Positions 3,001 through 19,297 of a stretch of DNA of 64,000 nt are shown here, piece after piece. The first letter of the stretch is position 1. Every line of letters starts with the position of its first letter. This DNA is from Lentisphaerae bacterium GWF2_45_14 (lineage in GTDB: Bacteria; Verrucomicrobiota; Lentisphaeria; Victivallales; GWF2-45-14), in contig MHBG01000048.1 of NCBI GenBank assembly GCA_001804785.1, forward strand, positions 25,401-89,400. Reading direction: 5' to 3'. A program made the position numbers and the translations under genes. Below the pieces are notes generated by a model. It was given only the letters and a program-made list of their open reading frames with translations. It was not told the DNA's origin and did no database searches.

Positions 3001-5745
3001 CTCATAGATCAATTTTCCAATGAAAACGCCGCATGGGAAGCCGCGTGGCGTGCCGAAGTCCAAGACATGAAAAAAGCCGGGTGGAGTAACGGGGCTTGTG
3101 AAACCGTCCTCAAACTTCGCCGGATCATGGGGCGGCAATATGAAATTCTCAAAAACGGCGTTGAACAGCAGAAAAAGGCATTGAAAGAACTCGGCGCCGA
3201 AATGCCCGAAATCAGCGGCATTGACATTTTCGAAGAATTAAAAAAGATGGGCGACCGGAGGGGATATTATATGCCCAGAATGCGACACGGGAATCATATG
3301 CTATGGGCGCATAAAACCGGAGAGAATCCTCGACTCGAAATATTCGATACAAAACTCATGAGAGCCAAACGCGCATCGGAATTGCGGCGTAATGGTTATA
3401 CCGCGGAAATGTCGCAAAGCAATACTCCGTCCGAGGATGTTTTTGCCGGAAGCGATATTACCGCGATGAATGACCTTATCAATAATGCGATGGATCGGAT
3501 TCGCAAAAGCGATGAACTGACATTTGAACGGTTCGGGCTTACGGGAGAATGGATTGATTACCCATTGAAAAACAGCAAAACGGAGCGGCATTTCGTTATT
3601 TCCGGAGGCAATACCAGTATTCACCATAATCTATTCAAGGAATTCGGCGGCAATTATTACGGGGATATGTGGCATTTTAAGGATCGTAAAAAGAGCTTTG
3701 AAAAAACGATCCTGAAAGCGATTGCCCATGTTGAAGGCGCCGCTATTGTTCAGACTGACGCAATAGGCCGTGCGCTGGCTGAACAGATCGCTGCCATAAT
3801 TCATAGCCATGGTTCGAGATCGCACAAGATCAAACGCGATGATCGGACGGGAAAAGATGTTTATCTCGGCTTTGAAGAGGATATTATCCAAGCTGCGACA
3901 CTCACGGGCAGAGCTATTGCCGGGGGAAGCGCAAAACGAATTATGGCTAAAGAAATGCTGGAAGCTTTCACAGGTCATGACTTGAAATGGAAAGATTATA
4001 AAGCTGAACACATGCCGAAAGACGTTAAGCTTGGCTCTCCTGAATATTATCAGGCGATGGAAGATACCTGGAATGGTTATCAGGATACCGTCAGAGCGCG
4101 CGGTATAGAATCTTCCAAGCAGAAAATAGCTTACCGTGAAGGTAAGAGCTTCATGAATGATATGCTCCGCAATGAAGAACCTATGGAGCGCGTTTTCGGC
4201 ATTATCAAAGGAATAGCCGCATTTAAATTCCTTTCCGGAGTTTCTTCAGGGGTAATAAACCTTACCGCACTGGCAACCAGCGTTCCGGCCGCAATGAAAT
4301 CATTCGGAAATATCGGATTCGTACGCTCTGGTTTTCTTCTCATCGCGGCCTCAAACAGATATACCCGCTATATGATGCGGAAAAAATTTGGGATAGGAAA
4401 GACTATGTCCGATAATGAAGAATGGCTTTTTGGCGAAATTACACGCCGGGGCTGGGATGCCGACTTGCAGAATCAGGAATTGACCGGAGCAACTATGACA
4501 TGGGGCGATAAAACTTGGAGAAGTATTGTCGATTTGTCAATGATTGTTTTCAGTACGACTGAACGATTAAACCGCGCTTCAACCATTGCCGCAGCGTATA
4601 ACGGAATGGCTGAAAAATTTGACGGTGAACTACCCGAAAGGCAAAGGGACAATCTTCTGCTTAAAGCAAAAGAAATTTCCGATAAAGCGCATGGTGTATA
4701 TGGAAAAGAAAATTTGCCGTCCTGGGCGCGTGGAGCATCTGCCGGGGCTCATGTGGCGCGGTCATTTTACATGTACAAGACATTTACTCATAATTATCTT
4801 CAGTTAATGGGGGAAATGTTCAAGGGCAAGAAAGTCTCATCATTTGCCTGGATGACGATTGCGCCGGCAATAGTCGGAGGATATTCGGCAAATGCATTAG
4901 AACCCATATTGAAAGCGCTGGCGTCCCTGATTCCCGGACTCCCCGATGATCCGGAAGAAGCCCTTTATAAATGGCTCCAAAAAACATTTGGTAAAACGGC
5001 GGAACGTTTCGGGCGTTCAGGGCTGGCCGGACTTTTAGGATTGAACCTCAAGGGTTCTATGGCAATCGGTTCATTTGAACTTCCGACAACAATAGATGAA
5101 GTGCTTGGCGCTCCTTATGCAATGGGGACAAGCGTCTTCAATGGAGGGAAGAACATTCTACGTGGCGATTGGATTAAGGGAGCCGAAGAGCTTTCTCCGC
5201 GTTTTGCAACCGGCCCTATTAAAGCATATAGGGAATATACCGAAGGTGTTACCAGCAAGAGCAATCAGCCGCTTTACTGGGGCAATGAGCGTTTAAAAGC
5301 AGATTATTATGATGCCTTATTGCGCTTTGCCGGATTCAACCCGGCTGAGATATCGGAAAAAAGAGAAGCACAGTGGAGTGAAAAACAAGTTGAAGCAAAA
5401 TACGGCGAAGAGCGCAAGATTATCTATGTAAAAGTGCGCCGTTTCCTGCTCGATGGCGGCGCAACTGCGGAATGGACAGATATTCTCAGGGAAATAATGG
5501 AGTATAATGCCAGAGTCAGAAGCCGCGAGCTTCATAATGTACCCCTGATTACGTCCAGCTCATTAAGAATCCTTCAGCGGAAAATGAATACGCCTGAAAA
5601 ACGTGAACAATTAAGAGGCGCAGAACCGGAAGAAGACAGAAAGAGGGAAGATTTATCGACGTTCTCGTTTGAGGATGAACCTGATTCGGAAAACGCTGGA
5701 AGGTCAAGATCGAGGCGCGCAAACAGGCGACAGACGAGAAGGTAA
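1..5745 (+). CDS. Giant phage polyvalent protein, 5'-truncated by window edge
   Basis: The reading frame is open to base 1, so the ATG at 25 is internal and at least 1,914 residues are present. Numbering from that ATG, residues 140-270 hold a conserved block (FGFRGIEFGNW, SLNGQLGLAFGARG) ending in a zinc-peptidase HEWWH at 245, resembling the LPD1-type region of polyvalent proteins. A second zinc-peptidase motif, HEALH, is at 473. Residues about 585-735 (ATHIMAKHF, RHGKI, GNGDRHIY) resemble the PBECR toxin-like nucleases found in phage polyproteins. The C-terminal third is helical and resembles LPD38, and the last 60 residues are Arg/Glu-rich. Proteins of this class are thought to be packaged and injected with phage DNA, acting early against the host. 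Domain names are from memory of family patterns; the class is confident, exact boundaries are not. It converges on the leftward operon. Confidence 0.8.
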   Translation, partial: GLYALYEAMGHDRSLKDYSIGMHYYELYNGIKQNVNKWAISDTNTHRDIIHADTAEDAIEKFKKYLDGLSESGKNKKIEFVIYSKSNEKGKYYISKKTGSNYIDLKSFDNVEDAKKYRIDNYSDLVNLLEKSKYIPETRTDTNRERVGKDYRQGKDVTPEMFTSAFGFRGIEFGNWVAKTEERQASLNRAFDALHDLADILGVATQALSLNGQLGLAFGARGAGGRNSAAAHYELDKVVINLTRKNGAGSLAHEWWHALDNYFPRMRDKPAGHLTTMPFALRNKDGSVNDSVRSEMINAFDDVMKAIYRSEMKTRSKRLDSTRTKEYWAKDVEMSARAFESYILNKIEGKEFSNDYLVNIVNEEAFQKDAEEHGGNSSYPYPLKAEQQEIDAVFDKFFDTIEEKEENGKHVLYRSSEYGNIRGGDKIRARRIIREMTGSIDNVRFAEKLFSNDGQEVLGKYEDAYIDIAENKGNIEDTARHEALHYAYDLLLTEREAQIFNEAASAQELNHEQAIEGINKFAHDHSGLRGKARLIAGRIIRRIRQLFGAERMIDRINEIYDRALSRKYAERELTGKSNYGGEVQYMSQNERKNLTGLIEQFKKELDNVEMNKEQKGIYDVITGNKRITQIRKNDLDNLAGFVNLEKGSGEFGATHIMAKHFDGTSGKVTAREIINIGEVIRHGKIRGNGDRHIYTLWENNQRYRAIVLTDGKKQSVITFYSNKTAYSPGDHTVPDGTKTNDEYAFSNSGGSHNAPLAQKAVTQAPKTIIHENNENVKELNQNEKNEPDDNFYSNRKAETRGNMASPRVESDSKDFPHTRISESDNLRSDSTQEQKTVAEEIPDSINDKTDKSKYRTLEVAEMTHESEMKQNAQHISFAREWLNTLFEKDTNAKTDVRFLSPLLQTIFYYSKKVPALGRVFDSAMRLRDNKYFYENMIFNADSGMGESELEPIVKFSKANKAEWTRLSKDYLWKRDIDAVGYKVRQSDDGTVFRIYTPENILIDQFSNENAAWEAAWRAEVQDMKKAGWSNGACETVLKLRRIMGRQYEILKNGVEQQKKALKELGAEMPEISGIDIFEELKKMGDRRGYYMPRMRHGNHMLWAHKTGENPRLEIFDTKLMRAKRASELRRNGYTAEMSQSNTPSEDVFAGSDITAMNDLINNAMDRIRKSDELTFERFGLTGEWIDYPLKNSKTERHFVISGGNTSIHHNLFKEFGGNYYGDMWHFKDRKKSFEKTILKAIAHVEGAAIVQTDAIGRALAEQIAAIIHSHGSRSHKIKRDDRTGKDVYLGFEEDIIQAATLTGRAIAGGSAKRIMAKEMLEAFTGHDLKWKDYKAEHMPKDVKLGSPEYYQAMEDTWNGYQDTVRARGIESSKQKIAYREGKSFMNDMLRNEEPMERVFGIIKGIAAFKFLSGVSSGVINLTALATSVPAAMKSFGNIGFVRSGFLLIAASNRYTRYMMRKKFGIGKTMSDNEEWLFGEITRRGWDADLQNQELTGATMTWGDKTWRSIVDLSMIVFSTTERLNRASTIAAAYNGMAEKFDGELPERQRDNLLLKAKEISDKAHGVYGKENLPSWARGASAGAHVARSFYMYKTFTHNYLQLMGEMFKGKKVSSFAWMTIAPAIVGGYSANALEPILKALASLIPGLPDDPEEALYKWLQKTFGKTAERFGRSGLAGLLGLNLKGSMAIGSFELPTTIDEVLGAPYAMGTSVFNGGKNILRGDWIKGAEELSPRFATGPIKAYREYTEGVTSKSNQPLYWGNERLKADYYDALLRFAGFNPAEISEKREAQWSEKQVEAKYGEERKIIYVKVRRFLLDGGATAEWTDILREIMEYNARVRSRELHNVPLITSSSLRILQRKMNTPEKREQLRGAEPEEDRKREDLSTFSFEDEPDSENAGRSRSRRANRRQTRR

Positions 5746-5751
5746 AACTAT

Positions 5752-5773
5752 GGGGGATATGATTATATCCCTC
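5752..5773. terminator. Hairpin between convergent genes, possible bidirectional terminator
   Basis: GGGATAT and ATATCCC pair around a GATT loop, with two more outer pairs if one G-T is allowed. It lies between the stop of the polyvalent gene and the stop of the leftward secreted-protein gene, overlapping the latter. There is no clear T-tract on either side, so a terminator role is only suggested by position. Confidence 0.3.
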
Positions 5774-6692
5774 CTCTTTCTGTCCATACACGTTCACGCC
5801 AAGCAAATTTAGAATCTTCAACCATTTCAGATATAAACCCTGCTTTGGTTTTCTTTAGTTTTTCTCTGGCAACCTTGAACTCCCAAGCGGTTTTTTCCAT
5901 TCCTTTTAACTTATCTGACAGTTCGGCGGTCTGTTGTTGTAACTGTTGGATTTTAATATTGAGACCTTTTATTATAGCCCAAGCTCCAGTATTTCTTGTC
6001 TGTGAAGTTGTCGTAGCATGAGCATCTATATCTCCAGTAATTTTAGTAGTGGTAGTTGTGGTTTTTTCATTTAGTTTCATTTGTTCGAAAACCGTAGTCC
6101 GCTTTTGTTCTAATTGCGAAATCTCTTGAAGTTTTGAATCTATCAATGTTTTGCCATGTTGAATAACATCTTCTATTCTGCGAACTTCACAATTGGGGAT
6201 AATAAACTCACTAGAAAATAAATTATCATCACCCCCTAATCTAAGATATTTATCACCTTGAACCACAATAAGAGATAAATCACTTGAAAGGAAAAGCTCA
6301 CCAGTCATAAAAATATTCAACATGTCTTGTTTTTGTTTTATATTTTTTAAATGGTTTTGTTTTCGCTCAAGGTCTAATTTTTTCTCGTATTCTGCAATTT
6401 TTTCTTTATTCGCTTGCTCTTTTTTTGCAAGTTGTTGCTGTGCATCAAGCACCTCTTTTTGGTGAGCTAGTTCTTTTTTAAACGAATATCCCAATTGTTT
6501 TTGCGAATCCTCAGACATTTCAATGAACTTCAAGAAGGCAACGCCTTCGGCATGCTGAATATCAACACCGGACGGAGTTTTATTCAGTACTGTTACATCT
6601 TTGAATTCGCGGCCATCAAGCATTTTTATATCGACAGCTGAGAGCTGGCAAGTTATTCCAATGGCAAGCAGTAGCAAGAAAAGCTTTTTCAT
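5763..6692 (-). CDS. Secreted coiled-coil protein at the end of the prophage operon
   Basis: It is 309 residues. A classical signal peptide (MKKLFLLLLAIG..., cleavage likely after residue 19) precedes a short domain (residues 20-65: DGREFKDVTVLNKTPSGVDI, then FLKFIEMSED) that resembles a module seen in exported proteins of Verrucomicrobia and Lentisphaerae. Residues about 75-125 are a Lys/Glu/Gln coiled coil, and a Thr-rich stretch follows near residue 215. The start is supported by GGGGGA upstream. It lies between the terminase module and the polyvalent gene. The host-like signal and domain suggest a cargo gene carried by the prophage rather than a virion part; function unknown. Confidence 0.6.
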   Translation of the reverse strand: MKKLFLLLLAIGITCQLSAVDIKMLDGREFKDVTVLNKTPSGVDIQHAEGVAFLKFIEMSEDSQKQLGYSFKKELAHQKEVLDAQQQLAKKEQANKEKIAEYEKKLDLERKQNHLKNIKQKQDMLNIFMTGELFLSSDLSLIVVQGDKYLRLGGDDNLFSSEFIIPNCEVRRIEDVIQHGKTLIDSKLQEISQLEQKRTTVFEQMKLNEKTTTTTTKITGDIDAHATTTSQTRNTGAWAIIKGLNIKIQQLQQQTAELSDKLKGMEKTAWEFKVAREKLKKTKAGFISEMVEDSKFAWRERVWTERGGI

Positions 6693-6766
6693 TATAAATC
6701 CCCCGTGTTATTATTGAATGCAAACACAATAATATTACACAAGTTGGGAAAAGTCAAATTTTACGC

Positions 6767-7402
6767 TCAATTCATTATCCTTGCAGGGTAACGGTCATAT
6801 CCGGAAAGGGCGCATTTCAGGGAATGAAGGGCGGGGTAAACACCGTCCTGATCGGCATTGTATTCCTGGAGCTGCTGATAGACTTTGCCGTCTTTACTGT
6901 ATTTGAGCTGCTGAAGAATATCTTTTTCAAATACCGTGTGCATAGCCTGATTGTCATCGCTCCATTTAATTTCGACAAAATGAGGTTTATTGGCAATCAT
7001 CGGAGACCGCACGACCTGAAGACGGTATTTCTGACACGTCTCATGATCCTGGTGAAAATAGAAAGTATCGGCATAGTAGCGAGTCCAGCAATCATTGAAC
7101 CAGGTAGAGAGACCCTTGAGCTTTATTCCTCCTTTTTCTCCATCGATCACATGGTCTATAGTGAAGAATTCCCGTTCTTCGAATACGTAAATTACATTGC
7201 TGACAAGATTGCGTCCGCACATAACCGCATATCCGGAAATACTGCCGTCAACCGGCACGGGAAAGCATATACCGCCGCGCATGTAATAATGGCCTTCAGG
7301 AATGGGCGATCCCTCGTTAAAGTAAAGCGCGGAAGTTTGCCTTTCGGTATTGAAGTGCGCTAGGAACGGTCTGTATAAACTGGTTTCTTCATTCGAATTC
7401 AT
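6767..7402 (-). CDS. Uncharacterised phage protein after terminase
   Basis: It is 211 residues from the ATG at 7402, chosen over an in-frame ATG at 7465. The 7402 start has GGGAG nine bases upstream and sits one base after the terminase stop, whereas the 7465 start has no ribosome site and would overlap terminase by 60 bases. The protein is rich in aromatic residues and charged loops with no transmembrane segment. No family recognised. Its position right after the large terminase, where portal genes often lie, is notable, but it is too short for a portal protein. Confidence 0.6.
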   Translation of the reverse strand: MNSNEETSLYRPFLAHFNTERQTSALYFNEGSPIPEGHYYMRGGICFPVPVDGSISGYAVMCGRNLVSNVIYVFEEREFFTIDHVIDGEKGGIKLKGLSTWFNDCWTRYYADTFYFHQDHETCQKYRLQVVRSPMIANKPHFVEIKWSDDNQAMHTVFEKDILQQLKYSKDGKVYQQLQEYNADQDGVYPALHSLKCALSGYDRYPARIMN

Positions 7403-7403
7403 A

Positions 7404-8861
7404 TTATATTGCTCCCTGTCCAAGTTGTCCGCCGCCGAGACGGCCAAGTTTATTATATCGTTCAATAGCCAGCTGGTAGCCGCCCGTTATTGCATCAACA
7501 ATGTCATCGTGAATTGCTGCCGGAAATTCTCCAAGCTGCTCCAGTGCCGCATTGTTCCAATAGGCTTTTCGCATATACACATGCCCGGCATCGAAAAGAG
7601 GCTCTACTTCTCCGGCGCGGACAACCTTATCAGAGTTGACCTTGCATTTATATACGATTGATTTTCCTTTGAGCAGCTTTTTCAGTGTCGTATATGCGTC
7701 CTTGTATCCTGCGACGGCTTCAACCCCCTGCCAGACTGCCTGCCCGTCAGATTCAGCGGCGGAAGTAATCAGCTTATCGCGTTCCGGGGCTTCGGACTGG
7801 CATACTCGAATATCGTCAATGAAAAGGTGATAGAGTCCATCAATATTGAGGACGCCGACTTTTGCTCCTGCAGTGTAATCCGGATCGTCTTTGGCACGTT
7901 CTTTTTCCGTGCTGGCCAAATCCCAGAAGCGCACCCATGCAATATTGTCCGGCATGGTATCCACTATTTTGACATTCTCGACGTTAAGCATATTGCCGCC
8001 GCGCAGTGTCGGTTCTCCCTGAAGCAGTGCGGACGCTCCGTAATCGCCCAGGGTAGCAAATTGCCGCCTATACCATGACTCATCAAAGCGTTCAGTGAAT
8101 AGATAAGAGCCATCATCTTGACGGGCTTTATAATGGAATTTTTTAAATATCGGGAATTCGGGATTATAATCGGCATGTTCAGGATTGTTTCGATTATGGA
8201 TATTCCCTGAAATATCATCGACATGCCAGCGGGTATTAAGAACGAGGCAGATATGAACCGGGGCAAGACGGCTGAAAAAGTCCTGTGAAAAGCTTTCCCA
8301 TCGAGTTTCGCGTATGGTTTTTGCTTCTGCCTCCTTGCGGTTCTTTAAAAAGTCGTCGATTATGAGGAGATTTGCTCCTTTGCCGGTTGCGCCGCCGTCT
8401 GCTCCGACTGCAAAATATTTACCGGTATGCCCCTTGATATGACGCTCGGCAGTGTTATTACTCTGCCCGTCCAATTCCGCGTCGAATATCTCCAGATAAG
8501 CATGAGACATCATAATTGTTTTGACATCTTTAGAAAATCCTTCTGAAAGAGTAGCTCCATAAGAAGCCTGGATTATTTCATCGTCCGGGAAATGGCCGAG
8601 GAAGTAGGCCGGAAGGTAGCGGCTGGAAATATCGCTTTTTCCATGTCTGAAGGGTACAACAATATCAAGATAGCTGCTGATCCCCTGCCTGTATAACTCA
8701 ATAGCTTCATCAATGGCCGCACATATTTCCGCAGTGTGTTTTCCGACAATCAAAGGACTTGACTTCCGCATCCAGCAGTGCCGCATGAATTCAAGGAGAC
8801 AATCTTTTGCCAGCGACGCCCGGCAAAGCTGTATCATTTCTGAGAATGAGATTTCAGCCAT
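7404..8861 (-). CDS. terL: Phage terminase large subunit
   Basis: DNA-packaging ATPase and nuclease, 485 residues. The N-terminal motor has a variant Walker A, PFRHGKSD, with GKS at 74-76, and Walker B LLIIDD at 165-170. The C-terminal RNase H-like nuclease starts with FWDLAST at 312-318 and ends with the acidic HDDIVDAITGG motif near residue 458, as in the family of large terminases with that C-terminal domain. Family length is usual. It overlaps the small-subunit gene by 28 bases, the normal terS-terL order. It works with TerS and the portal at the procapsid. Confidence 0.92.
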   Translation of the reverse strand: MAEISFSEMIQLCRASLAKDCLLEFMRHCWMRKSSPLIVGKHTAEICAAIDEAIELYRQGISSYLDIVVPFRHGKSDISSRYLPAYFLGHFPDDEIIQASYGATLSEGFSKDVKTIMMSHAYLEIFDAELDGQSNNTAERHIKGHTGKYFAVGADGGATGKGANLLIIDDFLKNRKEAEAKTIRETRWESFSQDFFSRLAPVHICLVLNTRWHVDDISGNIHNRNNPEHADYNPEFPIFKKFHYKARQDDGSYLFTERFDESWYRRQFATLGDYGASALLQGEPTLRGGNMLNVENVKIVDTMPDNIAWVRFWDLASTEKERAKDDPDYTAGAKVGVLNIDGLYHLFIDDIRVCQSEAPERDKLITSAAESDGQAVWQGVEAVAGYKDAYTTLKKLLKGKSIVYKCKVNSDKVVRAGEVEPLFDAGHVYMRKAYWNNAALEQLGEFPAAIHDDIVDAITGGYQLAIERYNKLGRLGGGQLGQGAI

Positions 8862-9430
8862 TGTAATTTTTCCCCGGGGGTCATTGTTGCGAACAGCGCT
8901 TTGGCTTTTTCGAGTTCGGTCTTGTCAGTGATTTGAGTTTCTGTTTTGTCGATAAACATTCCAAGATGCTTGGCGATGCTGTCGAGCGCATGTATTTTGT
9001 CATGGAGTTCAACCTCGACTTTGTCAACCGGAATCGGTTTTCTATCTTCGCCAAGCTTCATGACCGTTGTAACCTTGAATTTTTTGATGCAGGCGCGTTG
9101 TTCCTGAGTAAGCTTTTCAAAATCCTTCAGCGACATTGTCCCCTTGCGAAAGTTTACTATTCCCGGCAGATTGGTAAATGCTATTTTTGCATATTCACAT
9201 AGAACTTTGTCAACCGTGATCCCTGTTCGCATCTGGGCTTTCCTGCTGTTCTGATCAATAAACTCAGCGACAAGCGGCGTATGAAGAACATCGTGCGCCC
9301 GGCGCCGGATTGTGGCGTTATTGGACTTGTTTACGCTGTAGGCGTAACGGTATGCATCTGCCGCATTTCCGCATTCGAGAAAGCGCAGCGCGAAATTTCT
9401 CTGTTTTTGTGTAAGTGATTTTTGACGCAT
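8834..9430 (-). CDS. terS: Phage terminase small subunit
   Basis: It is 198 residues. The N-terminus (LTQKQRNFALRFLECGNAADAYRYAY) is the helix-turn-helix typical of the Terminase_2/XtmA family, which binds the packaging site and oligomerises. The middle has the family's usual EYAKIAFTNL and HDKIHALDSIAKHLGMF segments. It lies directly upstream of terL and overlaps it. Confidence 0.9.
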   Translation of the reverse strand: MRQKSLTQKQRNFALRFLECGNAADAYRYAYSVNKSNNATIRRRAHDVLHTPLVAEFIDQNSRKAQMRTGITVDKVLCEYAKIAFTNLPGIVNFRKGTMSLKDFEKLTQEQRACIKKFKVTTVMKLGEDRKPIPVDKVEVELHDKIHALDSIAKHLGMFIDKTETQITDKTELEKAKALFATMTPGEKLQWLKSHSQK

Positions 9431-9494
9431 AATATATAAAACTCCTGAGTCTCAAATAAGCCCGAATGCAGCAAAAAGCAAAAAAACAAAACCT

Positions 9495-9896
9495 CTAAAT
9501 CAACTCTTGAAATTGAGAAGTATAAAGATTCATGCCGAAAATTTGTTTCAGCTCTCTTAATGCCGCAACTTGAGCATTAACGCGCCTTGACGCCGATTGC
9601 TCGCTTGAAGAAATAACTTGTCTGTCTTTCGATATGCTCCACTGCCACGAAAAACGCATGTCGTAGCTTACATTAATAGAGTAATCGCCCCTGCATTCGA
9701 GAGAACACGAACTTCCAAAATATTCCCACGGAAGCGCATCGGCACTTAATTGAATTTTATTCATTTTCCGGGGAATAGGGATTTTTGCTTTCTTCATTTC
9801 GGCCTTGCGTTGGCATCCGGGGCATAGTCCGTCTTCTTCGACTTTGGCATAGTTGATTCCGCAGTCTTTGCATTTGCAATAGAAAATTACTTGCAT
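9495..9896 (-). CDS. Small zinc-ribbon phage protein
   Basis: It is 133 residues. The N-terminal 30 residues hold two Cys pairs (CKCKDCG and CPGC), likely one zinc site. The rest shows alternating strands and no known motif. An AAGGAG ribosome site precedes the ATG. Function unknown; it lies in a run of small zinc proteins upstream of the terminase. Confidence 0.6.
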   Translation of the reverse strand: MQVIFYCKCKDCGINYAKVEEDGLCPGCQRKAEMKKAKIPIPRKMNKIQLSADALPWEYFGSSCSLECRGDYSINVSYDMRFSWQWSISKDRQVISSSEQSASRRVNAQVAALRELKQIFGMNLYTSQFQELI

Positions 9897-9949
9897 GTAT
9901 TATAGCTCCTTAAAGTTCTTTTGTTGTAATTGTGAAATTTTTTCATAGT

Positions 9950-10207
9950 TCAAAGTCCATGTATTTCCGCGAATTCCACGCGGCCTTTCAGTATCTTTTC
10001 TTCAAGTATATTCGCGCTATCGCCATCGCAATCTTCATCGAGTCTGCGCTCTTCGAGGTCATTCGGCGTCGATTCCGCAAAATCATTGACAACATCGACT
10101 TTCATATTCAATTCTTCTCGGCAGAACTGACAAATCCAACCTTTTGAAGGAGCTTGTTCATATTCCCATTCAACACTGAATCCGCAGCGGGGGCAAGCAA
10201 CCTTCAT
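9950..10207 (-). CDS. Small zinc-ribbon phage protein
   Basis: It is 85 residues from the ATG at 10207, which has GGAGGGGG four bases upstream and starts right after the previous gene's stop; the longer frame from 10231 lacks this support. CPRCG at the start and CQFC about 20 residues later form a four-cysteine zinc ribbon. The remainder is acidic. Function unknown. Confidence 0.6.
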   Translation of the reverse strand: MKVACPRCGFSVEWEYEQAPSKGWICQFCREELNMKVDVVNDFAESTPNDLEERRLDEDCDGDSANILEEKILKGRVEFAEIHGL

Positions 10208-10208
10208 T

Positions 10209-10592
10209 TTACCCCCTCCAGCCTTTAACAACCAATACCCAGGTAATGAACATCGCTACAATTGCCCATATTGCGTGTATAAGCACCGCCGTGCCGCAAA
10301 CCCTTGCGAGTCCAAGGAAAACCTCCATCGGCAACGTTTTGAGAAATGGCATCTGTGTGCGGAGTTCCAGTTCTTTTATTTTGTTCTCTAAAGCATGAGC
10401 TTCTGCCTCTGCCCGTGTGGTATCGAGCTGGCTTTTGATTAATACTCCGTCTCCGATTCCGAGTTTTGCAAGTTCAAGTTCGTGTTCTCGTTTGCGTTCA
10501 GCTTGAACTGCCTCTTTGGCATGGTAATCGTCTGGCTTAAGCCCGTATTTCAAAATAAAATCAGCTTCCTGCTGTGGTGTAATCGTGGACAT
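10209..10592 (-). CDS. Small membrane protein with coiled coil
   Basis: It is 127 residues from the ATG at 10592, chosen for the AAGGAG eight bases upstream; the frame extends to 10652 without such a site. The N-terminal 85 residues are charged and helical (AEAEAHALENKIKELELR). One hydrophobic helix spans about residues 98-120, near the C-terminus. A holin or an inner-membrane anchor is possible, but nothing specific supports either. Confidence 0.55.
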   Translation of the reverse strand: MSTITPQQEADFILKYGLKPDDYHAKEAVQAERKREHELELAKLGIGDGVLIKSQLDTTRAEAEAHALENKIKELELRTQMPFLKTLPMEVFLGLARVCGTAVLIHAIWAIVAMFITWVLVVKGWRG

Positions 10593-10611
10593 TTTAAATC
10601 TCCTTTTTAAA

Positions 10612-10770
10612 TTATGCGATCTTTTGTTTAAGTGATTCTTTGGTAGGAACATTGTAATTTTTGCGGTCTCGGAACTCCTGTAATTTGCCCCGGTTCCAAT
10701 TCTCTAAAGGCCGAAAATATCCGCAAACACGACTGTAAACTTCCGTTTTTGCGCCGCACCTCTTAATCAT
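10612..10770 (-). CDS. Stand-alone glycyl-radical-like domain of anaerobic ribonucleotide reductase (NrdD C-terminus)
   Basis: It is 52 residues, below usual ORF cut-offs. The sequence YSRVCGYFRPLENWNRGK followed by EFRDRKNY matches the C-terminal end of class III reductase NrdD, where the Gly before Tyr carries the radical. Here that Gly is residue 17. Only one Cys (residue 5) of the usual zinc-binding Cys set remains, plus the Cys before the Gly. A perfect AAAGGAGG lies upstream, and the gene overlaps its upstream neighbour by eight bases. By analogy with GrcA/YfiD, which replaces the damaged radical domain of pyruvate formate-lyase, it may restore or modify host NrdD; this is inference. 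Confidence 0.75.
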   Translation of the reverse strand: MIKRCGAKTEVYSRVCGYFRPLENWNRGKLQEFRDRKNYNVPTKESLKQKIA

Positions 10771-10981
10771 GATGAACCTCCTTTAATTCAAATTCAGGGT
10801 ATTTTGAAATGACTTTTCCCGTTTCCGAATCGGTTTTAATTATCTGAATCCCGTATTTTTTTTTACCGCAGTAATTATTCAGGGCATGGAGATTTTCCAA
10901 TGCTATTGTCCTTTGGTGATAAATTTCACTTACCGCATTACGGGTTTTCTTGCTATAAATCCGCCAATGTCTGCGCTTCAT
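10763..10981 (-). CDS. Small uncharacterised phage protein
   Basis: It is 72 residues, basic at the N-terminus (MKRRHWRIYSKKTRN). AAGGAGG lies five bases before the ATG. It is translationally coupled to the downstream NrdD-like gene by an eight-base overlap. No domain recognised. Confidence 0.6.
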   Translation of the reverse strand: MKRRHWRIYSKKTRNAVSEIYHQRTIALENLHALNNYCGKKKYGIQIIKTDSETGKVISKYPEFELKEVHHD

Positions 10982-10996
10982 AAAACCTCCTTATTT

Positions 10997-11278
10997 TTAT
11001 ATAGTTACATAACCTTTTGTGCTGTATATTCGCTCAACATACTTTTCTGGTGTTTCGCTCAGTTGCCGGCATAATCGCGGGGGCGCTGTTTTGCTCGGAC
11101 GGGACTGATAATGCCGAATTGCGTCTGACAGTTTTTTTGTCAGTTCCTCGACTTCGAAAGGGCGTTCCTCAATTTCCTCGAGATACGATTTACAGCAGTG
11201 ATCGAAATTAGAAAGATTACACGGCAAAACTTTCTGCCGCTCCCGCAAAATAACTTTTTTAATTTTTTCGATATTCAT
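10997..11278 (-). CDS. Small uncharacterised phage protein coupled to primase
   Basis: It is 93 residues, charged and helical, with Cys at 20, 28 and 29. The start overlaps the primase stop by four bases (ATGA), so it is translated with the primase-helicase and may be an accessory replication factor. No family recognised. Confidence 0.55.
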   Translation of the reverse strand: MNIEKIKKVILRERQKVLPCNLSNFDHCCKSYLEEIEERPFEVEELTKKLSDAIRHYQSRPSKTAPPRLCRQLSETPEKYVERIYSTKGYVTI

Positions 11279-13659
11279 TTGATCAATACCTCTTTGACTT
11301 CGTTGTGAACGAAGCCGATTACTTTTATTCCGCCGTCAAGCTGAGGATTCAGAATAAATCCCCGCCGCGTATCATTCCTGCACGTAAAGCTTTTTCCGAA
11401 AATATTTGCAAACCCCTGCTTGATAAGGTTCTTTAAATAGCCGAGTTTATTTCCCCTGAACGTTGTAGGAACGGCCTTTTCAAGCCATACTTCCATAACC
11501 TCGGAGCGGATGAAATATTTTTCGTCCGTGCATAAGTTATGGGCAATTAGCTGCTGCTTGATATAATCCTGAATCCTAGCCGCCATTTCCGGATCAACAT
11601 TGGATTCCTCGCGGGCGACTGCCAGCTTTGCAAGTACATTCTGATAGTTCTCTTCCGTTTGGCAAAACGGCTGAAGAAGCTTTGTTTCAAACTCAGGAAA
11701 GCGCGTCTGCGGTTTGAGATTGAAGGCCTTCCAGTTTTGAACCGCGTCAAGAATTTCCGCAATGATTTTATAGCGGAACTCTTCGACATATTTGATAACT
11801 TCGGTTTTCCAGGACGCGGAATAACCGGATGCTGCCTTGACGTAGATAAAGTATGAACGCTGCGCCGTGTCGTTATCGATCGTGGCACTGTTGGCTGTAA
11901 TAATGAACGTAAGATTGTTCGGGCGCGTTTCCTCTCCTCTACCGTATGGTGGCCTTCCACTGATCGAACTTGATGTAACCATGTCGGCGAACTGCGAACA
12001 ATGAAAAAGCCCCGTAACGTTGTCCAGGAGCAGGATTTTCTTCTGCCGCCCCGTGACGGAGACAATGCGCTTCGTGATTTCGTCGAATTTGGTTTTTATC
12101 TGGTCAACGTTTGTCCGGATTTCTTTTCCTCCGTGAAGAATGGCGTTGACTTCGGCAAGCGTGGTTTTCCCGGTTCCGGCGCCATCCTCCGAGTCGATGA
12201 TCCAGCTGGGACGCGGAATTTCAGGCTCATAATAAAGCGGCGCGGCGAAAAACGAATAGAGCAGGATTTTGTATTCGGGACTTGCAGGATTGAAGAAATC
12301 AATCAGCTGGTGAAGATGGGGATGTCCTGAATCGGGATTGGGAAGAGCCGGAAACGCCGGATAAGCGTCTTTTCGTTCCGGCCAGCTTGGGGCATAGCTT
12401 ATTTCTTCATAGCGCAGAGCCGATTGTTCGATGGCGGCGAAAAATTCTTTTTTCGTCACGTAACCCGTTCCGGCTTTCCAGTTGACCAGCCGTTTGCTTT
12501 TGGATTGTATCCAGGAAAAGAATTCATTCTCGTTGCGGATGATATTTATGCGGTTCGTTTTTCTGTCATGGTCGAAGAGTGTTTCGCCGACTTTGCGAGG
12601 AAAACCCAGAAAGCGGATATGGACTTCATCGACAAGATCGTTTATCTGGCGCGGCTTCATGCTCTCTTCGCCGGATTCAGTCTTATATTTGATGTAGTTG
12701 CAAAAATCCGCACGATTGGCCTGTTTTGCCTCCTGAATCGCATGATAATCATCCTGAGGACGCTTTATATCGGATTTGTTGATAACGGGCTGCTTTTTGA
12801 TGTACTGAAGGAGCGCCTTTTCTCCATACTTGTTGAAATAGTCAGTAACGTCAAAGCCCGATACTTCATTATTGAAACGGACAACCTTTATCATGCCGAC
12901 GGTCTCGCGGAGTTCCCAGAGCAGAAATCCTTCACGCGCCCGGCCAGGTATATCATTATCGGTAAAAATAATGACGTCTTTTCCTTTGAGCGCGGTACTG
13001 TAGCTGACGTTCCATGTTCCGCAACCACTTGAATTCGTTGTTGCCAGAACCTTCATATTGCGTAAGGTATCCGCGTCTTTTTCCCCCTCGCAAATGCAGA
13101 CATTGTTCTGATCCTTCCACTCCGGCCAGCGGTAAAGGACTTTTTTAACGTGCTTCACGCTCTCATTGCCGAAAGCGTCGCATTGAACGAATTCTTTCTG
13201 CTTTTCCGTGTGTTCCCATCGTTGGACAACCATAATCAAGCTGCCGTCCTCGTCATGATACGGGTAATCCATTGTTTTTATATATCCGTGTTTCTTGAGG
13301 AATTCCGAGCGGCCTTGACGGGCTTCTTTCCGCGTAAATTCTTTTGCTTTCAAACTCAGGAGATCACCGAGGAACTGTTGGGCGTCCTGTTTTTTGTCGT
13401 AAATATCATCGGCAGCGCCGCCGAACTTCACGCGGCGGACGAGTTCTATAACGCCGCCTTTTTCCTGTGTTACGTGATCCGTCCATCCGCTTTCGTTCAT
13501 AGAAAGGGCGCCGGAATCCGAACCCGGTCTCCACGGGATATTGAAGCGGTCGCCTTGTCCGCCGACGGGTTCCAATCCAAGCTGAGACTTGGCGATTTCC
13601 AAGCAGTTTGCGTGCGCGTATATGTCTTTGTATTCGTAGAAACGTTCAATTGTTGACAT
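11275..13659 (-). CDS. Phage primase-helicase (TOPRIM plus P-loop ATPase)
   Basis: It is 794 residues. Residues 30-80 resemble a DnaG-like N-terminal region (GRF-type fold, W...GWTDHV...KGGVIELV) but without the cysteines of a CHC2 zinc finger. TOPRIM spans about 186-265, with Glu191 in CICEGEKDAD and the Asp pair in FTDND at 234 and 236. The C-terminal ATPase has Walker A GAGTGKTT at 493-500, Walker B ILLLDNVTG near 546 and an ITANSATIDND sensor-like motif. It should prime and unwind phage DNA. It is the replication core of the operon. A DNA polymerase is not seen in the window. Confidence 0.85.
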   Translation of the reverse strand: MSTIERFYEYKDIYAHANCLEIAKSQLGLEPVGGQGDRFNIPWRPGSDSGALSMNESGWTDHVTQEKGGVIELVRRVKFGGAADDIYDKKQDAQQFLGDLLSLKAKEFTRKEARQGRSEFLKKHGYIKTMDYPYHDEDGSLIMVVQRWEHTEKQKEFVQCDAFGNESVKHVKKVLYRWPEWKDQNNVCICEGEKDADTLRNMKVLATTNSSGCGTWNVSYSTALKGKDVIIFTDNDIPGRAREGFLLWELRETVGMIKVVRFNNEVSGFDVTDYFNKYGEKALLQYIKKQPVINKSDIKRPQDDYHAIQEAKQANRADFCNYIKYKTESGEESMKPRQINDLVDEVHIRFLGFPRKVGETLFDHDRKTNRINIIRNENEFFSWIQSKSKRLVNWKAGTGYVTKKEFFAAIEQSALRYEEISYAPSWPERKDAYPAFPALPNPDSGHPHLHQLIDFFNPASPEYKILLYSFFAAPLYYEPEIPRPSWIIDSEDGAGTGKTTLAEVNAILHGGKEIRTNVDQIKTKFDEITKRIVSVTGRQKKILLLDNVTGLFHCSQFADMVTSSSISGRPPYGRGEETRPNNLTFIITANSATIDNDTAQRSYFIYVKAASGYSASWKTEVIKYVEEFRYKIIAEILDAVQNWKAFNLKPQTRFPEFETKLLQPFCQTEENYQNVLAKLAVAREESNVDPEMAARIQDYIKQQLIAHNLCTDEKYFIRSEVMEVWLEKAVPTTFRGNKLGYLKNLIKQGFANIFGKSFTCRNDTRRGFILNPQLDGGIKVIGFVHNEVKEVLIK

Positions 13660-13714
13660 GATTTTTTATTCCATTTCTCTGAGTTTAAAATCCTTCATTT
13701 TCTAACCATTCTTT

Positions 13715-14146
13715 TTATTCAAACGAAACATGATGTTTCACAAATTTATCCGCCCGTCTTTTAGTTACGCATTTATATTTTGGATAGGAATTGACCAAGC
13801 TATATTTTGCTTGCTCTTTAGTGAATATTTCAGCTTTGCAAATATCCAAAGTGTAGCCGCGTCCGTGTTTTGCGTAAAACAAAAGGCAATTTCCGACATA
13901 TCCAGTATAAAGGTAATATTTTAATTCATTGTCTTTTTGTTCGATGGGCAAGCTGTAGTTCGTGTATTCCTGTTCAAAAATGGCTTCATTTTCGAAAATT
14001 GCATCTCGAAGCACCAGTGCCGTATCTCCGATATAAGAACGAGAATCGAATTGACCCTGTTCTACCTTGTGCCACATATCAAAAAGAATGCGTTTGCAGG
14101 AAGCTAGTTTACTACTCAGAATGAGTGTTTCTTTTCGGAGATTCAT
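13715..14146 (-). CDS. Uncharacterised phage protein
   Basis: It is 143 residues. AAAGAGG lies upstream of the ATG, and the gene overlaps the preceding small gene by four bases (ATGA). The central part is acidic and aromatic. The C-terminal half (GYTLDICKAEIFTKEQAK) looks like a short alpha/beta module seen in operon mates of phage replication genes. Function unknown. Confidence 0.55.
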   Translation of the reverse strand: MNLRKETLILSSKLASCKRILFDMWHKVEQGQFDSRSYIGDTALVLRDAIFENEAIFEQEYTNYSLPIEQKDNELKYYLYTGYVGNCLLFYAKHGRGYTLDICKAEIFTKEQAKYSLVNSYPKYKCVTKRRADKFVKHHVSFE

Positions 14147-14340
14147 AATTTTACCTCTTTAAACGTTTCTAAGCACTGTTTCAGCCTCTTTTGTAGCAAT
14201 TTTTGTCCGGGTAATAGATTCAGTCTGTGAGAACCATTTTGAAACAAGACGCACCAGCCGTCTTTTCCGGCATGATGACATCTTCCACAAAACTTTTTCT
14301 CAGCGTCAATTTCCAGTTGTATTGTTCCTGTGAGTTTCAT
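14143..14340 (-). CDS. Small cysteine-containing phage protein
   Basis: It is 65 residues from the ATG at 14340, preceded by AAGGGA; the longer frame from 14385 would overlap the Dam-like gene and lacks a ribosome site. FCGRCHHAGKDGWCVLF is a compact possible metal-binding or redox motif of three Cys and two His. Overlaps the next gene by four bases. Confidence 0.55.
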   Translation of the reverse strand: MKLTGTIQLEIDAEKKFCGRCHHAGKDGWCVLFQNGSHRLNLLPGQKLLQKRLKQCLETFKEVKL

Positions 14341-14342
14341 CT

Positions 14343-15164
14343 TCAAATCCCTTCTTTTAAGCATTCCTGATTGATCCATATACATTCAGTCCGCGCTCCG
14401 GATTGATATGTATTGTTCCTGTAAGTTCTTGATTCCTTTTTCCAACCGGATTTTTCGAGTTCGGTGTAAATCGGATTATCATAGCTCGATATTATGACCA
14501 TGCCGCGAATTTGCTGAAGAAGGTCAATAAGAAGACGATGCTGTTCGTCCGTCAGCTCGTAAGCGTATTTATGTTTATTGGCCTGAGTTCTGGTATCATG
14601 CGGATACGGCGGATCAAGATACCAAAGTATGTTCGAATCATCCTTGTGCTTTTCAATTAGCGCGAATGCGTCCATATTTTCAATGATTACCCCGGCAAGG
14701 CGATCCGCGAATATGTCGATATATCCGGGATAAGATGCCCAGTTATGAGCAGGTAATGAATGCTTGCGCCTGAAGTCAGTCCTGAACCCGGATTTATAAT
14801 TTTTAGCAATTACACTGTCCGCATGATACCCCATTCCTGCGCGAATCAAGAAGCGGCGGGCATTCTCTATTTCGTCATCGGACGGAATGAACGCGTTATC
14901 ATATTCCATTCTCGCAAATGGCGTGAGGCTTAATTTCTCCTGAAGGTTTTTCTTTTTTACATCGTCTTGCAGGATACGAAAAAGATTCACAATCTCATGA
15001 TTCAAATCATTGAAAAGTTCCGCATAACTTTTGGGTTTCCTAAACAAAACACTTCCGGCGCCGCCGAATGGCTCGATGTAAATCCGGTGTTCCGGAAAGT
15101 GCGACACGATCCAGGGTGCAACACGCCATTTGCCGCCGTAGTAACGAAATAGTGAGCGGGTCAT
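14343..15164 (-). CDS. DNA N6-adenine methyltransferase (Dam / D12 class)
   Basis: It is 273 residues, the normal length for the family. FRYYGGKW at 6-13 and IEPFGGAGSVLF at 30-41 form the S-adenosylmethionine motifs, and LDPPYP near residue 180 is the catalytic DPPY. The target is probably a short palindrome such as GATC, but the recognition residues cannot be read reliably. No restriction enzyme is linked, so it is an orphan phage methylase, likely for protection from host restriction or for regulation. Neighbour to a C5-methyltransferase. Confidence 0.9.
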   Translation of the reverse strand: MTRSLFRYYGGKWRVAPWIVSHFPEHRIYIEPFGGAGSVLFRKPKSYAELFNDLNHEIVNLFRILQDDVKKKNLQEKLSLTPFARMEYDNAFIPSDDEIENARRFLIRAGMGYHADSVIAKNYKSGFRTDFRRKHSLPAHNWASYPGYIDIFADRLAGVIIENMDAFALIEKHKDDSNILWYLDPPYPHDTRTQANKHKYAYELTDEQHRLLIDLLQQIRGMVIISSYDNPIYTELEKSGWKKESRTYRNNTYQSGARTECIWINQECLKEGI

Positions 15165-15179
15165 AGTAAAATTATCTCC

Positions 15180-17003
15180 TTATGCCACAATTGCGGCTTT
15201 TATTAATGCCTCTGCCAATACTGGCGGAACGGCATTGCCTATCTGCTTGACTTGATTCGATTTATTTCCGGCAAATTTATAGTTTTTGGGGAAGCTCATC
15301 GCGGCAGCAAGTTCGGATGGTTGGAACATTCTGAAAAGAATATCCAGTTTGAATATGCTTCCTTTCGCATCAATGAAACACCGTCCAGCACAAAGCCCGA
15401 ATCGTTCTTTGCATGTCACGGTGTCCAGGGGCTCGTTAATAGATTCAGCAGTACCGTTTCCATAGTATGTAGATATGAACGGTTCAATTTGAGAAATTGC
15501 TCCTTCCGTGGCAATAGTCGGAAGCGGATTGCTGACAGGTTTTACGCTTCCGCCTCCATGCTGAGGAATAAACATTGCCTCCACAATGGCAATATTGTTT
15601 CTGGTTGTAATCGTATTAACTGGATCGTTTGCACTTCTAATACGTCCCTTACTGTCGGCTGTATGAGTCATATCGACAACCATTGGAGAAACAAGGCAAT
15701 GCTCAGCTTTTGTTACAATTGTTGATATGGGGTCATTCATTCCCGATGCCCTATGTCCTCCAGACGTGTGCCCTGTCGCAAATACGCATGGTTCCACAAC
15801 TCCTATATGCGTCCCATTTGCTGTAACGGTTGGGCAAGGATCAGAGGACGGACGGCATGAACTGTTGATATTCGATTTATTTGTTCCCCTTAGTGTAACT
15901 ATGACAGGCTGAACAACCCCATAGCGATTCGAACAATCCTGCACCGGAACGGGATCAGCAATTTGGCTGTGTCTGTTATCGCCGCCATTGTATCGGCTAA
16001 CGAACGGTTCAATGATTGCAACATGATTTCGCGTACTGATCGCCGGAACAGCGTCCGAGATTGCCTTGCATGATGGAGTATCCTGTTTTGCGGCGGTTCC
16101 GCGCATTATTAGCATGAAAGGGGCTTCGATGCCTTGTGTTTTGAGTTTGGGTAAAGAATATAAATACATCAATGGACATTTACGGTGACACTGACAACTT
16201 CTGATAATCTCCTGTCTTACAAGTGGCGTATACAGATTTGCAGCAGCCCCCCAATATTTGACAATGCCGCTGTAAATTCTGCGTAAGGTATTCGGGACAA
16301 GTGGTTTTTTGCGGTCAAAGATTGATTTCCCCGGAATATCCCAATCGATAATATCACGGGCAGGAACCCAAGATTTATAAAGCCCTTCTAATAATCCTGG
16401 GTCTTTTACGTGAGTCGGTTCAGGCCAGCAGATTTTTTCTTTTCCTCGGGCGGCCTGAATAATGAGGCGTTTCCTGCATGTCGGAGCACCAAAATCAGCG
16501 GCATTGAGAATCCGATATTCTACACGGTACCCGAATGCTTTAATCATGCCGATAAATTTTTTAAAAATTTCGCCTTTCTTCGACTTTATGATATTTCCTT
16601 TATCATCGACCGGCCCCCATGCAAGAAATTCCTCAACATTCTCAATATAAACACGGTCAATAATAAGCTCCTGAATCCATTTCAATACATGCCATGCGGT
16701 TGACCTGCTCTGATCATCGCGGGGACGGCCTCCTTTTGCCCTTGAGTGGTTGGTGCATTCCGGGGATGCCCATAAAAAATTTAAACGTCCTCCCGGGACA
16801 AGATCGCGCGGCGATATATTTTCAACCGAGTCACGATAATACCGGGCTTTTTCATGATTAAGCTTATTTGTGTCAATGGCGATTTGCCAATGATTGACTC
16901 CAACCAATTCATATTCAATGCCCTGCTTCACAAAGGCGTTGATCATTCCGGTCGAAGTTCCCCCGCCGCCGCAAAACAAATCTGCCGCATAGAATGTTTT
17001 CAT
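15180..17003 (-). CDS. DNA C5-cytosine methyltransferase with repeat-filled recognition region
   Basis: It is 607 residues from the ATG at 17003 (AGGTGA upstream; overlaps the previous stop by four bases). Motif I is DLFCGGGGTS (8-17). The catalytic Cys83 lies in SPECTNHS instead of the usual PPCQ. ENVEEF at 121-126 is motif VI and RKRLIIQA near 177 is motif VIII; QIGNAVPP near 587-594 is the C-terminal motif. Between VIII and the last motif, residues about 294-540 consist of seven repeats of 32-40 residues, each ending in a pattern like DPxPTxTxxxxxxIVEP. Typical enzymes are 350-450 residues, so the repeats account for the extra length. Likely methylates phage DNA. Confidence 0.88.
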   Translation of the reverse strand: MKTFYAADLFCGGGGTSTGMINAFVKQGIEYELVGVNHWQIAIDTNKLNHEKARYYRDSVENISPRDLVPGGRLNFLWASPECTNHSRAKGGRPRDDQSRSTAWHVLKWIQELIIDRVYIENVEEFLAWGPVDDKGNIIKSKKGEIFKKFIGMIKAFGYRVEYRILNAADFGAPTCRKRLIIQAARGKEKICWPEPTHVKDPGLLEGLYKSWVPARDIIDWDIPGKSIFDRKKPLVPNTLRRIYSGIVKYWGAAANLYTPLVRQEIIRSCQCHRKCPLMYLYSLPKLKTQGIEAPFMLIMRGTAAKQDTPSCKAISDAVPAISTRNHVAIIEPFVSRYNGGDNRHSQIADPVPVQDCSNRYGVVQPVIVTLRGTNKSNINSSCRPSSDPCPTVTANGTHIGVVEPCVFATGHTSGGHRASGMNDPISTIVTKAEHCLVSPMVVDMTHTADSKGRIRSANDPVNTITTRNNIAIVEAMFIPQHGGGSVKPVSNPLPTIATEGAISQIEPFISTYYGNGTAESINEPLDTVTCKERFGLCAGRCFIDAKGSIFKLDILFRMFQPSELAAAMSFPKNYKFAGNKSNQVKQIGNAVPPVLAEALIKAAIVA

Positions 17004-17431
17004 TTTGTCACCTGGGTGATGTCCCCTTCTACAAAACTTTTGATTATATTTCCCTGCTTGTCGTAGTAAATGGTTTTCCAATAAGGATGGCAATTTTCGC
17101 TATAGGGATTTCCGTCAAAACAGACTGCCAAATTTAGGCCGCACGTACCACAGATTGTTCCCATTTTTCCACAGACTGAAACGCGCATGCCTTGATAAGC
17201 AAACTCAATGCCGCGTTGAGTAATCATATGTGTAAAACGTTCTGGATCGCCGAACAAATCCGCAACGCGGAATTTATGAAGGAGGTGAACAGAATCAACT
17301 CCATGTAGATAGTTTTGAAATGTGTCAACTACTTCGCGCAACTCGCAAAAATGACGATATTTTGCCTGTCCGGGACTCTTTGCGACAATTTGTTCTGGAT
17401 TACTTGCCCATATAATTTCGTATGTATTCAT
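17000..17431 (-). CDS. Uncharacterised cysteine-rich phage protein
   Basis: It is 143 residues. The N-terminal part (YEIIWASNPEQIVAKSPGQAKYRHF) is followed by a helical segment. A Cys-rich part follows (CGKMGTICGTCGLNLAVC and a later NCHPYWK), probably one zinc site. It is coupled to the C5-methyltransferase by a four-base overlap. Function unknown. Confidence 0.6.
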   Translation of the reverse strand: MNTYEIIWASNPEQIVAKSPGQAKYRHFCELREVVDTFQNYLHGVDSVHLLHKFRVADLFGDPERFTHMITQRGIEFAYQGMRVSVCGKMGTICGTCGLNLAVCFDGNPYSENCHPYWKTIYYDKQGNIIKSFVEGDITQVTK

Positions 17432-17435
17432 GGCC

Positions 17436-17915: not shown

Positions 17916-17917
17916 GA

Positions 17918-18232
17918 TTAGTTTCCTTCCACTTTATTGATAAGTTTTAAAATAGCCTGTGCCTCTTTTGCGCAGATTGTAATTTCGAGAGGATAGTCCT
18001 CGCTAAGGCCGTCAAGGTTCTTTCCGTTATGCAATTCGGGATAATTGCGCCGGTTTAAAATTTCTTTTCCAATAGACACAAGAGCCTCAAGCATTTTTCT
18101 GTTTTCCTCGGAAATTTCGGCAATGAGTTCATCCCGTTTGTATAAATGCCGGAATGCGGCCTTTAGACTTCTCTCGTCTATATTGGGATTAAATGATGCA
18201 AGTTCTTCAAGACTGATTAATTTGCGCTCCAT
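17918..18232 (-). CDS. Small helical phage protein
   Basis: It is 104 residues, almost entirely charged helix (LEELASFNPNIDERSLKAAF...), without Cys clusters or membrane segments. It is separated by only two bases from the deoxyribosyltransferase-like gene. No family recognised. Confidence 0.55.
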   Translation of the reverse strand: MERKLISLEELASFNPNIDERSLKAAFRHLYKRDELIAEISEENRKMLEALVSIGKEILNRRNYPELHNGKNLDGLSEDYPLEITICAKEAQAILKLINKVEGN

Positions 18233-19284: not shown

Positions 19285-19297
19285 TTTTGAAGGCTCC

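What the first reader, a model, noticed from the sequence alone, without database searches (positions are those of the whole stretch)
10612..10770. 52-residue stand-alone NrdD glycyl-radical domain
The peptide matches the last part of anaerobic ribonucleotide reductase, with the radical Gly in RVCGY, but has no reductase body. GrcA/YfiD repairs pyruvate formate-lyase in a similar way. A phage spare part for NrdD would supply deoxynucleotides in anoxic hosts after oxygen damage. It is shorter than ORF cut-offs and therefore easily missed.
Basis: partly seen in the sequence, partly recalled or inferred. Interest (0 to 1): 0.75.

Follow-up and report, generated by a model that had tools for sequence, protein, structure and literature searches.

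The report
Phage-borne radical subunit of split reductase
A virus lodged in a bacterial chromosome carries a 52-residue copy of the radical-bearing tail of the enzyme that makes DNA building blocks without oxygen; the bacterium's own version of that enzyme is encoded as two separate genes, body and tail, so the viral tail likely swaps in as the radical piece and would help supply DNA precursors for the virus.

Summary
In detail: window 10612-10770 (minus strand) is a 52-aa gene matching only the last 37 positions of the NrdD profile, with the radical glycine in RVCGY. It lies in a ~53.5-kb prophage bounded by a 50-bp exact repeat in a tRNA-His gene.

The interpretation changes, because the host's own NrdD is naturally split. 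A 674-aa body stops where the radical domain should begin; a separate 51-aa gene with its own ribosome-binding site encodes that domain; an nrdG-type activase gene follows. In 67 of the 80 closest genomic loci the radical domain is likewise a separate gene just behind an NrdD body, in isolates too.

So the phage gene duplicates a normal, separable subunit. Free-standing copies without a body in the flank make up 77 of 80 viral loci, and all keep the glycine. A second phage-like contig of the same genome carries one as well. The host split falls inside the zinc knuckle, so zinc is probably held between two chains.

Binding, activation and dNTP supply are inferred. A repair role for one-piece NrdD is not excluded: 2 of 60 related genomes combine free copies with only a fused NrdD. 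Seven literature searches found no account of split NrdD.

The parts
10612..10770 (-). 52-aa free-standing NrdD glycyl-radical domain; predicted radical Gly17 in RVCGY, Cys5 = predicted zinc ligand
10777..10784 (-). Shine-Dalgarno AAAGGAGG of the 52-aa gene, inside the end of the upstream ORF
   Evidence: sequence read directly
10763..10981 (-). 72-aa ORF directly upstream, overlapping the start of the radical-domain gene; homologues in the same place in L118, L132, L133/L134; function unknown
11275..13659 (-). 794-aa DNA primase/helicase (phrog_239, Toprim), upstream in the same gene run
17436..17915 (-). nucleoside deoxyribosyltransferase (phrog_12607)
18330..18815 (-). dATP/dGTP diphosphohydrolase N-terminal domain (PF18909)
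1..29344 (.). part of the prophage that lies in the window (prophage = C48:1153-54744 of the host genome; integrase-like 385-aa ORF beside the left repeat at C48:1357-2514)
29295..29344 (.). right 50-bp exact att repeat, inside tRNA-His 29299-29375; left copy at C48:1153

Best explanation
The 52-aa phage gene encodes a free-standing NrdD glycyl-radical domain that likely works as an exchangeable radical subunit of the host's naturally split class III ribonucleotide reductase and would help supply dNTPs for phage DNA synthesis. Shown: the gene, its NrdD-tail homology, the radical glycine, the prophage setting, and the host operon nrdD body / 51-aa radical domain / nrdG-type activase. Inferred: the phage domain docks on the host NrdD body, completing a zinc site of which the body holds Cys-x-x-His...Cys and the small chain the last Cys; the host activase puts the radical on its glycine; the loop enters the barrel and starts ribonucleotide reduction. 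Because the host part is a separate chain, exchange needs no prior cleavage of a one-piece enzyme. The phage copy would raise the supply of this short, oxygen-labile part, or replace damaged copies.
For: Homology and Gly. The host NrdD is split: body 674 aa matches TIGR02487 positions 1-545, the separate 51-aa ORF 545-581, and the 238-aa third gene is NrdG2 above cut-off. The split is natural: 67 of 80 genomic loci show it (66 by script, L066 by reading), including Victivallis vadensis DSM 14823, Malonomonas rubra DSM 5091, Desulfuromusa kysingii DSM 7343 and the complete chromosome of strain zth2. All 66 scripted small ORFs have a Shine-Dalgarno against a shuffled mean of 24.4 and maximum of 35; frames relative to the body are 22/17/27, so no read-through; an NrdG-like gene follows in 53 of 61 testable. 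Body tails carry CP-x-HGY...C in 64 of 67 by script, and in the three misses plus L066 on reading. Phage copies: 77 of 80 viral loci free, 66 of those 77 with at least 2 kb upstream held; radical Gly in 78 of 78 non-fused viral rows, though the viral search patterns did not contain it. The lysogen is certain as host: att repeat. The window core is nearer split (22/27) than fused (19/27) radical domains.
Against: No binding, activation or activity can be shown. The host has another RNR large subunit (PF02867), so class III is not its only source of dNTPs. The AlphaFold read-through model places the radical domain only at pLDDT about 22-67, and the phage domain alone gives no PDB match at E<=0.001. 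Of 78 non-fused viral rows, 30 have the Cys at another position only and 5 at neither, so the shared-zinc idea does not cover them. Free copies also occur in G029 and G032, which show only fused NrdD. Only 36 of 71 scored viral copies have a Shine-Dalgarno by the simple test (shuffled mean 14.2). Viral pairs with low synonymous divergence give a pooled pN/pS of 0.36, moderate rather than strong constraint.
Confidence: 0.7

Rival explanations
1. Spare part in the strict GrcA/YfiD sense: the phage domain is used only after oxygen cuts the radical domain of an NrdD, including one-piece enzymes, and repairs it.
For: T4 Y06I and E. coli YfiD do this for pyruvate formate-lyase, and the authors speculate about other glycyl radical enzymes (PMC8683613, passages). 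Oxygen cleaves NrdD at the glycyl radical (PMC3019208, passage). Free radical domains occur in G029 and G032, which show only fused NrdD. ANMV-1 virus has a 144-aa form with two CxxC pairs ahead of the radical domain.
Against: The only NrdD body found in this host is already a separate chain, so no cut is needed and a normal subunit copy explains the gene. 61 of 76 viral cores are nearer the split than the fused set, 7 tie, 8 nearer fused (the fused set is small and mostly from one order).
Confidence: 0.17
2. Regulator or inhibitor: the phage domain competes with the host domain for the body or for NrdG and changes feedback control or slows host DNA synthesis.
For: dATP inhibits P. copri NrdD by loosening the radical domain (PMC11226230, abstract and passages), so a domain of different affinity could shift control. 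The host body has an N-terminal stretch that aligns with the ATP-cone part of P. copri NrdD (8p23), and the phage carries a dATP/dGTP diphosphohydrolase domain.
Against: A mere blocker would not need the radical glycine, yet 78 of 78 non-fused viral rows keep it.
Confidence: 0.1
3. A neutral remnant of a degraded NrdD gene carried along by the prophage.
For: It is short and has no body beside it.
Against: Consensus Shine-Dalgarno, intact frame, the same gene on an IMG/VR contig, conserved Gly across diverse viral copies, pN/pS 0.09-0.22 against 14 loci.
Confidence: 0.03

Closest known systems
GrcA/YfiD (E. coli) and Y06I (phage T4), autonomous glycyl radical cofactors for pyruvate formate-lyase
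   Same: Small free-standing glycyl-radical domain without the enzyme body; one known example is phage-encoded; would lend its radical to a partner body.
   Different: Those belong to PFL and are about 14 kDa (PMC8683613, passages); this one is 52 aa, matches only the NrdD family in Pfam, and its host enzyme is naturally split, so no cleavage is needed first.
Class III ribonucleotide reductase NrdD (T4, T. maritima, P. copri)
   Same: The window ORF is the last ~37 positions of it; the host body holds the rest.
   Different: Known NrdDs with structures carry the radical domain on the same chain; here it is a separate gene.
Split class II RNR NrdJa/NrdJb (Pseudomonas aeruginosa)
   Same: An RNR whose zinc-bearing C-terminal part is a separate gene (PMC9669993, passage; PMC4520616, search listing only).
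   Different: Class II, adenosylcobalamin radical; no glycyl radical and no phage-borne copies reported in what I saw.
ANMV-1 virus protein AJP62049.1, annotated 'anaerobic ribonucleoside triphosphate reductase'
   Same: 144-aa viral protein ending in an NrdD radical domain, no NrdD body in the 10 kb shown.
   Different: Longer; carries two CxxC pairs of its own; virus of uncultured archaea; only a name in the record.

Membership tests
NrdD (complete class III RNR large subunit) | Catalytic barrel and active-site cysteines on the same chain | tested here: not met
   52 aa, profile 526-562 of 562 only
NrdD (complete class III RNR large subunit) | C-terminal radical loop R-V-x-G-Y | tested here: met
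   RVCGY; aligned with host and relatives
NrdD (complete class III RNR large subunit) | Complete four-ligand zinc site beside the radical loop | tested here: not met
   Only one Cys at the zinc position on the small chain; the host body tail carries the other Cys-x-x-His...Cys. Zinc binding itself not testable.
GrcA/YfiD autonomous glycyl radical cofactor | Sequence membership in the PFL-type glycine-radical family (PF01228, accession recalled) | tested here: not met
   The only Pfam family at E<=1 is NRDD PF13597
GrcA/YfiD autonomous glycyl radical cofactor | Free-standing domain that restores an oxygen-cut enzyme | not testable with these tools
   Free-standing: yes; rescue needs biochemistry
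Split class III RNR radical subunit (proposed here) | Host NrdD body ends before the radical domain and a separate ORF supplies it | tested here: met
   Host operon; 67 of 80 genomic loci
Split class III RNR radical subunit (proposed here) | Two chains assemble into an active reductase | tested here: inconclusive
   Read-through AlphaFold model superposes on NrdD structures with its last aligned residues in the radical domain, but that part has pLDDT 22-67

The most novel reading that the evidence does not exclude
Class III ribonucleotide reductase exists as a two-chain glycyl radical enzyme whose radical sits on a ~50-aa exchangeable subunit clamped to the body by a zinc ion shared between the chains, and phages broadly carry their own radical subunit to take over host dNTP synthesis, possibly with altered dATP feedback.
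Probability: 0.4. Interest if true: 0.9.

Novelty: new variant of a known kind. Interest (0 to 1): 0.77.

Why it matters
If true, the radical of an essential enzyme can be delivered as a tiny plug-in subunit, and phages exploit that. It answers, for a second enzyme, the open question whether spare-part proteins exist beyond pyruvate formate-lyase (posed in PMC8683613, passages), and offers a natural two-piece system in which radical installation, docking and feedback could be studied on separate chains. It also flags a class of sub-60-residue viral genes that lie below many ORF cut-offs.

Tried and rejected
Read-through or frameshift joining of body and radical domain: rejected, because the small ORF lies in all three frames relative to the body (22/17/27 of 66), every one has a Shine-Dalgarno, and in the host two stops intervene.

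Assembly error as the cause of the split: rejected, because the split is in isolates and one complete chromosome and in 67 of 80 loci. Split NrdD as sole RNR of some genome: not established. 17 of 20 genomes given to (18 order members with a body lacking the domain, plus M. rubra and zth2) have a PF02867 RNR; the three without (G009, G022, G026) are 72-80% complete. V. vadensis has no PF02867 match but has two fused NrdDs besides the split one.

Named-phage search: 3 of 50,697 records matched the window protein. Oceanotoga phage (annotated NrdD) and MT835493 (802-aa ORF) are fused; ANMV-1 is free-standing. A second query gave two of the same records.

Neighbour survey: of 137 flanking ORFs at 72 distinct viral loci, 106 are on the same strand and only those 106 were scanned. 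Of the 25 families listed (of 133), 18 are DNA or nucleotide metabolism (including one DNA methyltransferase), 5 terminase, 2 unknown; the commonest has 4 members, so there is no fixed neighbourhood.

Literature: searches gave no report of split NrdD or stand-alone NrdD radical domains. The library holds open-licence papers only, so subscription papers are unseen.

Full report
Observation. The ORF at 10612-10770 is on the minus strand: 52 aa with an ATG start. It matches Pfam NRDD at 40.5 bits over profile positions 526-562 of 562 only and TIGR02487 over 545-580 of 581. The radical glycine stands in RVCGY. An AAAGGAGG Shine-Dalgarno precedes the ATG, inside the end of the 72-aa upstream ORF, whose last codons overlap the start. 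A viral contig in IMG/VR carries the identical protein and matches the window at 99.975% over 12,156 bp.

Setting. The window is C48:25401-89400 of a 3.77-Mb, 123-contig genome, 89% complete. A 50-bp exact repeat links window 29295-29344, inside tRNA-His, with C48:1153. A 385-aa integrase-like ORF (judged by its sequence and place, not scanned) lies beside the left copy, and host methionyl-tRNA synthetase begins just past the right one. This delimits a prophage of about 53.5 kb with terminase, primase/helicase, methyltransferases, a nucleoside deoxyribosyltransferase and a dATP/dGTP diphosphohydrolase domain. The host is therefore known. It belongs to the same order as Victivallis vadensis: relative G018 gives the same match coordinates as the V. 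vadensis genome reached through L053, so this placement is inferred.

The host enzyme is split. The only NrdD body found in the host genome (C10) is a 674-aa ORF that matches TIGR02487 positions 1-545. After 120 bases comes a 51-aa ORF matching positions 545-581, and then a 238-aa NrdG2-type activase above its cut-off. In the host, the break falls in the zinc knuckle. Fused relatives read CPxHGY...CPxCGxKTEVYSR. The host body ends CPVHGYIPGVHHECPVD..., and the small protein starts MSKCGSKTEVYSR. So the body keeps Cys-x-x-His...Cys and the small protein has the last Cys. That these four bind one zinc is inferred; the literature confirms only that NrdD radical domains contain a structural zinc site (PMC11226230 and PMC4493059, passages).

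How general the split is. The genome scan matched 180 relatives and kept the best 80, so this sample favours close kin. In 66 of 81 rows (80 loci) a script found an NrdD body just upstream in a separate ORF; L066, which the script called fused, is also split on reading, giving 67 loci. The other 14 rows (13 loci) show no body in the flank, 4 of them with under 2 kb upstream. Record titles are mainly Lentisphaerota, Desulfuromonadales and Thermoguttaceae, with a few others, and include isolates. Body tails show the CPxHGY...C motif in 64 of 67 by script (66 genomic, 1 viral); the three misses and L066 show it on reading. All 66 small ORFs have a Shine-Dalgarno (shuffled mean 24.4, maximum 35), frames relative to the body are 22/17/27, and an NrdG-like gene follows within 1.5 kb in 53 of the 61 with enough sequence. 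Among 60 genomes of the order (own included), I count from the table 21 with a full-length body lacking the domain and a separate domain match close downstream. One (G009) has such a body without the domain nearby. G011, G021 and G047, bridged by that search, read as split.

Unlinked copies. By my count, 17 of the 60 genomes have a radical-domain match away from any body; a few of these lie near contig ends. The host itself has three: the window; contig C39, a phage-like contig with terminase, portal, head protease and integrase families, its terminase (phrog_15) differing from the window phage's best match (phrog_38); and C122, beside an MraZ-like gene with no phage gene seen there. I fetched 20 unlinked loci of relatives, and a strict motif re-found the ORF in 18. 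Ten of their neighbour proteins were scanned (from L203, L205, L206, L211, L216, L217): eight matched PHROGs families, among them Sak4-like, ERCC4-type nuclease, processivity factor and tail fibre, and two matched none. G029 and G032 have free copies but only a fused NrdD.

Viral copies. The viral scan gave 85 relatives and kept 80. 77 are free-standing, 66 of them with at least 2 kb upstream held; two are fused (L148, L168) and one is split (L149). All 78 non-fused rows keep the radical Gly, which was not part of the viral search patterns; some other conserved positions were. Cys patterns: at the window position only 32, at a position four residues closer to the radical loop only 30, both 11, neither 5. 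Core identity is nearer the split set in 61, tied in 7 and nearer the fused set in 8 of 76 (small fused set). No NrdG-like gene was found in the 77 free loci. Same-strand neighbours include primases, helicases, SSB, Sak4, exonucleases and dUTPase, but also terminases, with no fixed partner. A profile search with 12 viral copies of the second type returned 7,976 proteins of similar size (a capped list that must include fragments), some named 'anaerobic ribonucleoside-triphosphate reductase'.

Mechanism. Most likely the phage protein docks on the host body in place of the host's own small protein, is activated by the host NrdG, and starts ribonucleotide reduction. Docking, activation and dNTP supply are inferred. 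Oxygen cleaves NrdD at the glycyl radical (PMC3019208, passage), so the small chain is the part most easily lost, and replacing 52 residues is cheap. Whether the phage needs this for repair, for more enzyme, or for altered feedback is open. P. copri work ties dATP inhibition to loosening of the radical domain (PMC11226230, abstract and passages), which makes the last idea testable.

Against. The host has another RNR. The structural models do not settle the docking. The zinc idea covers only copies with the matching Cys. Viral pN/pS among low-divergence pairs is moderate, pooled 0.36. The phage protein is 61% identical to the host one, so exchange is plausible but not assured.

Known and new. 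Phage T4 Y06I and E. coli YfiD are the only validated spare parts according to PMC8683613 (passages), both for pyruvate formate-lyase. Split RNR is known for class II (PMC9669993, passage). I found nothing in print on a split class III enzyme or on phage-borne NrdD radical domains, although database names and the ANMV-1 record show that such small proteins have been annotated.

Noticed in passing
window 10763-10981 (-): 72-aa ORF overlapping the start of the radical-domain gene; 46-58% identical homologues sit directly upstream of free radical domains in L118, L132 and L133/L134. Possible partner protein.
   Followed up: partly
window 18330-18815 (-): dATP/dGTP diphosphohydrolase N-terminal domain (PF18909) in the same prophage as the radical domain; may adjust dATP pools.
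   Followed up: no
L149, 2948-6111: 175.8-kb viral contig with an NrdD body in two matched pieces about 1 kb apart (intervening sequence not identified), then a separate radical-domain ORF.
   Followed up: no
L157, L174, L180, L184, L186, L191, L193; L196:4677-5111 (ANMV-1): Viral radical domains with CxxC-type pairs of their own in an N-terminal extension, perhaps carrying a complete zinc ribbon.
   Followed up: no
window 19856-21936 (-): RecD2-like helicase encoded by two abutting ORFs: HHH domain on the first, AAA/UvrD_C on the second.
   Followed up: no
L198:3042-5450: Fused NrdD of 802 aa with an extra C-terminal tail containing a CPNC motif, glutaredoxin/thioredoxin-like by eye, followed by a thioredoxin-reductase-like ORF.
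   Followed up: no
L201 (host C122), radical-domain ORF at L003:1498-1650: A third unlinked copy in the host, beside an MraZ-like gene and near a contig end, with no phage gene seen in the part scanned.
   Followed up: partly
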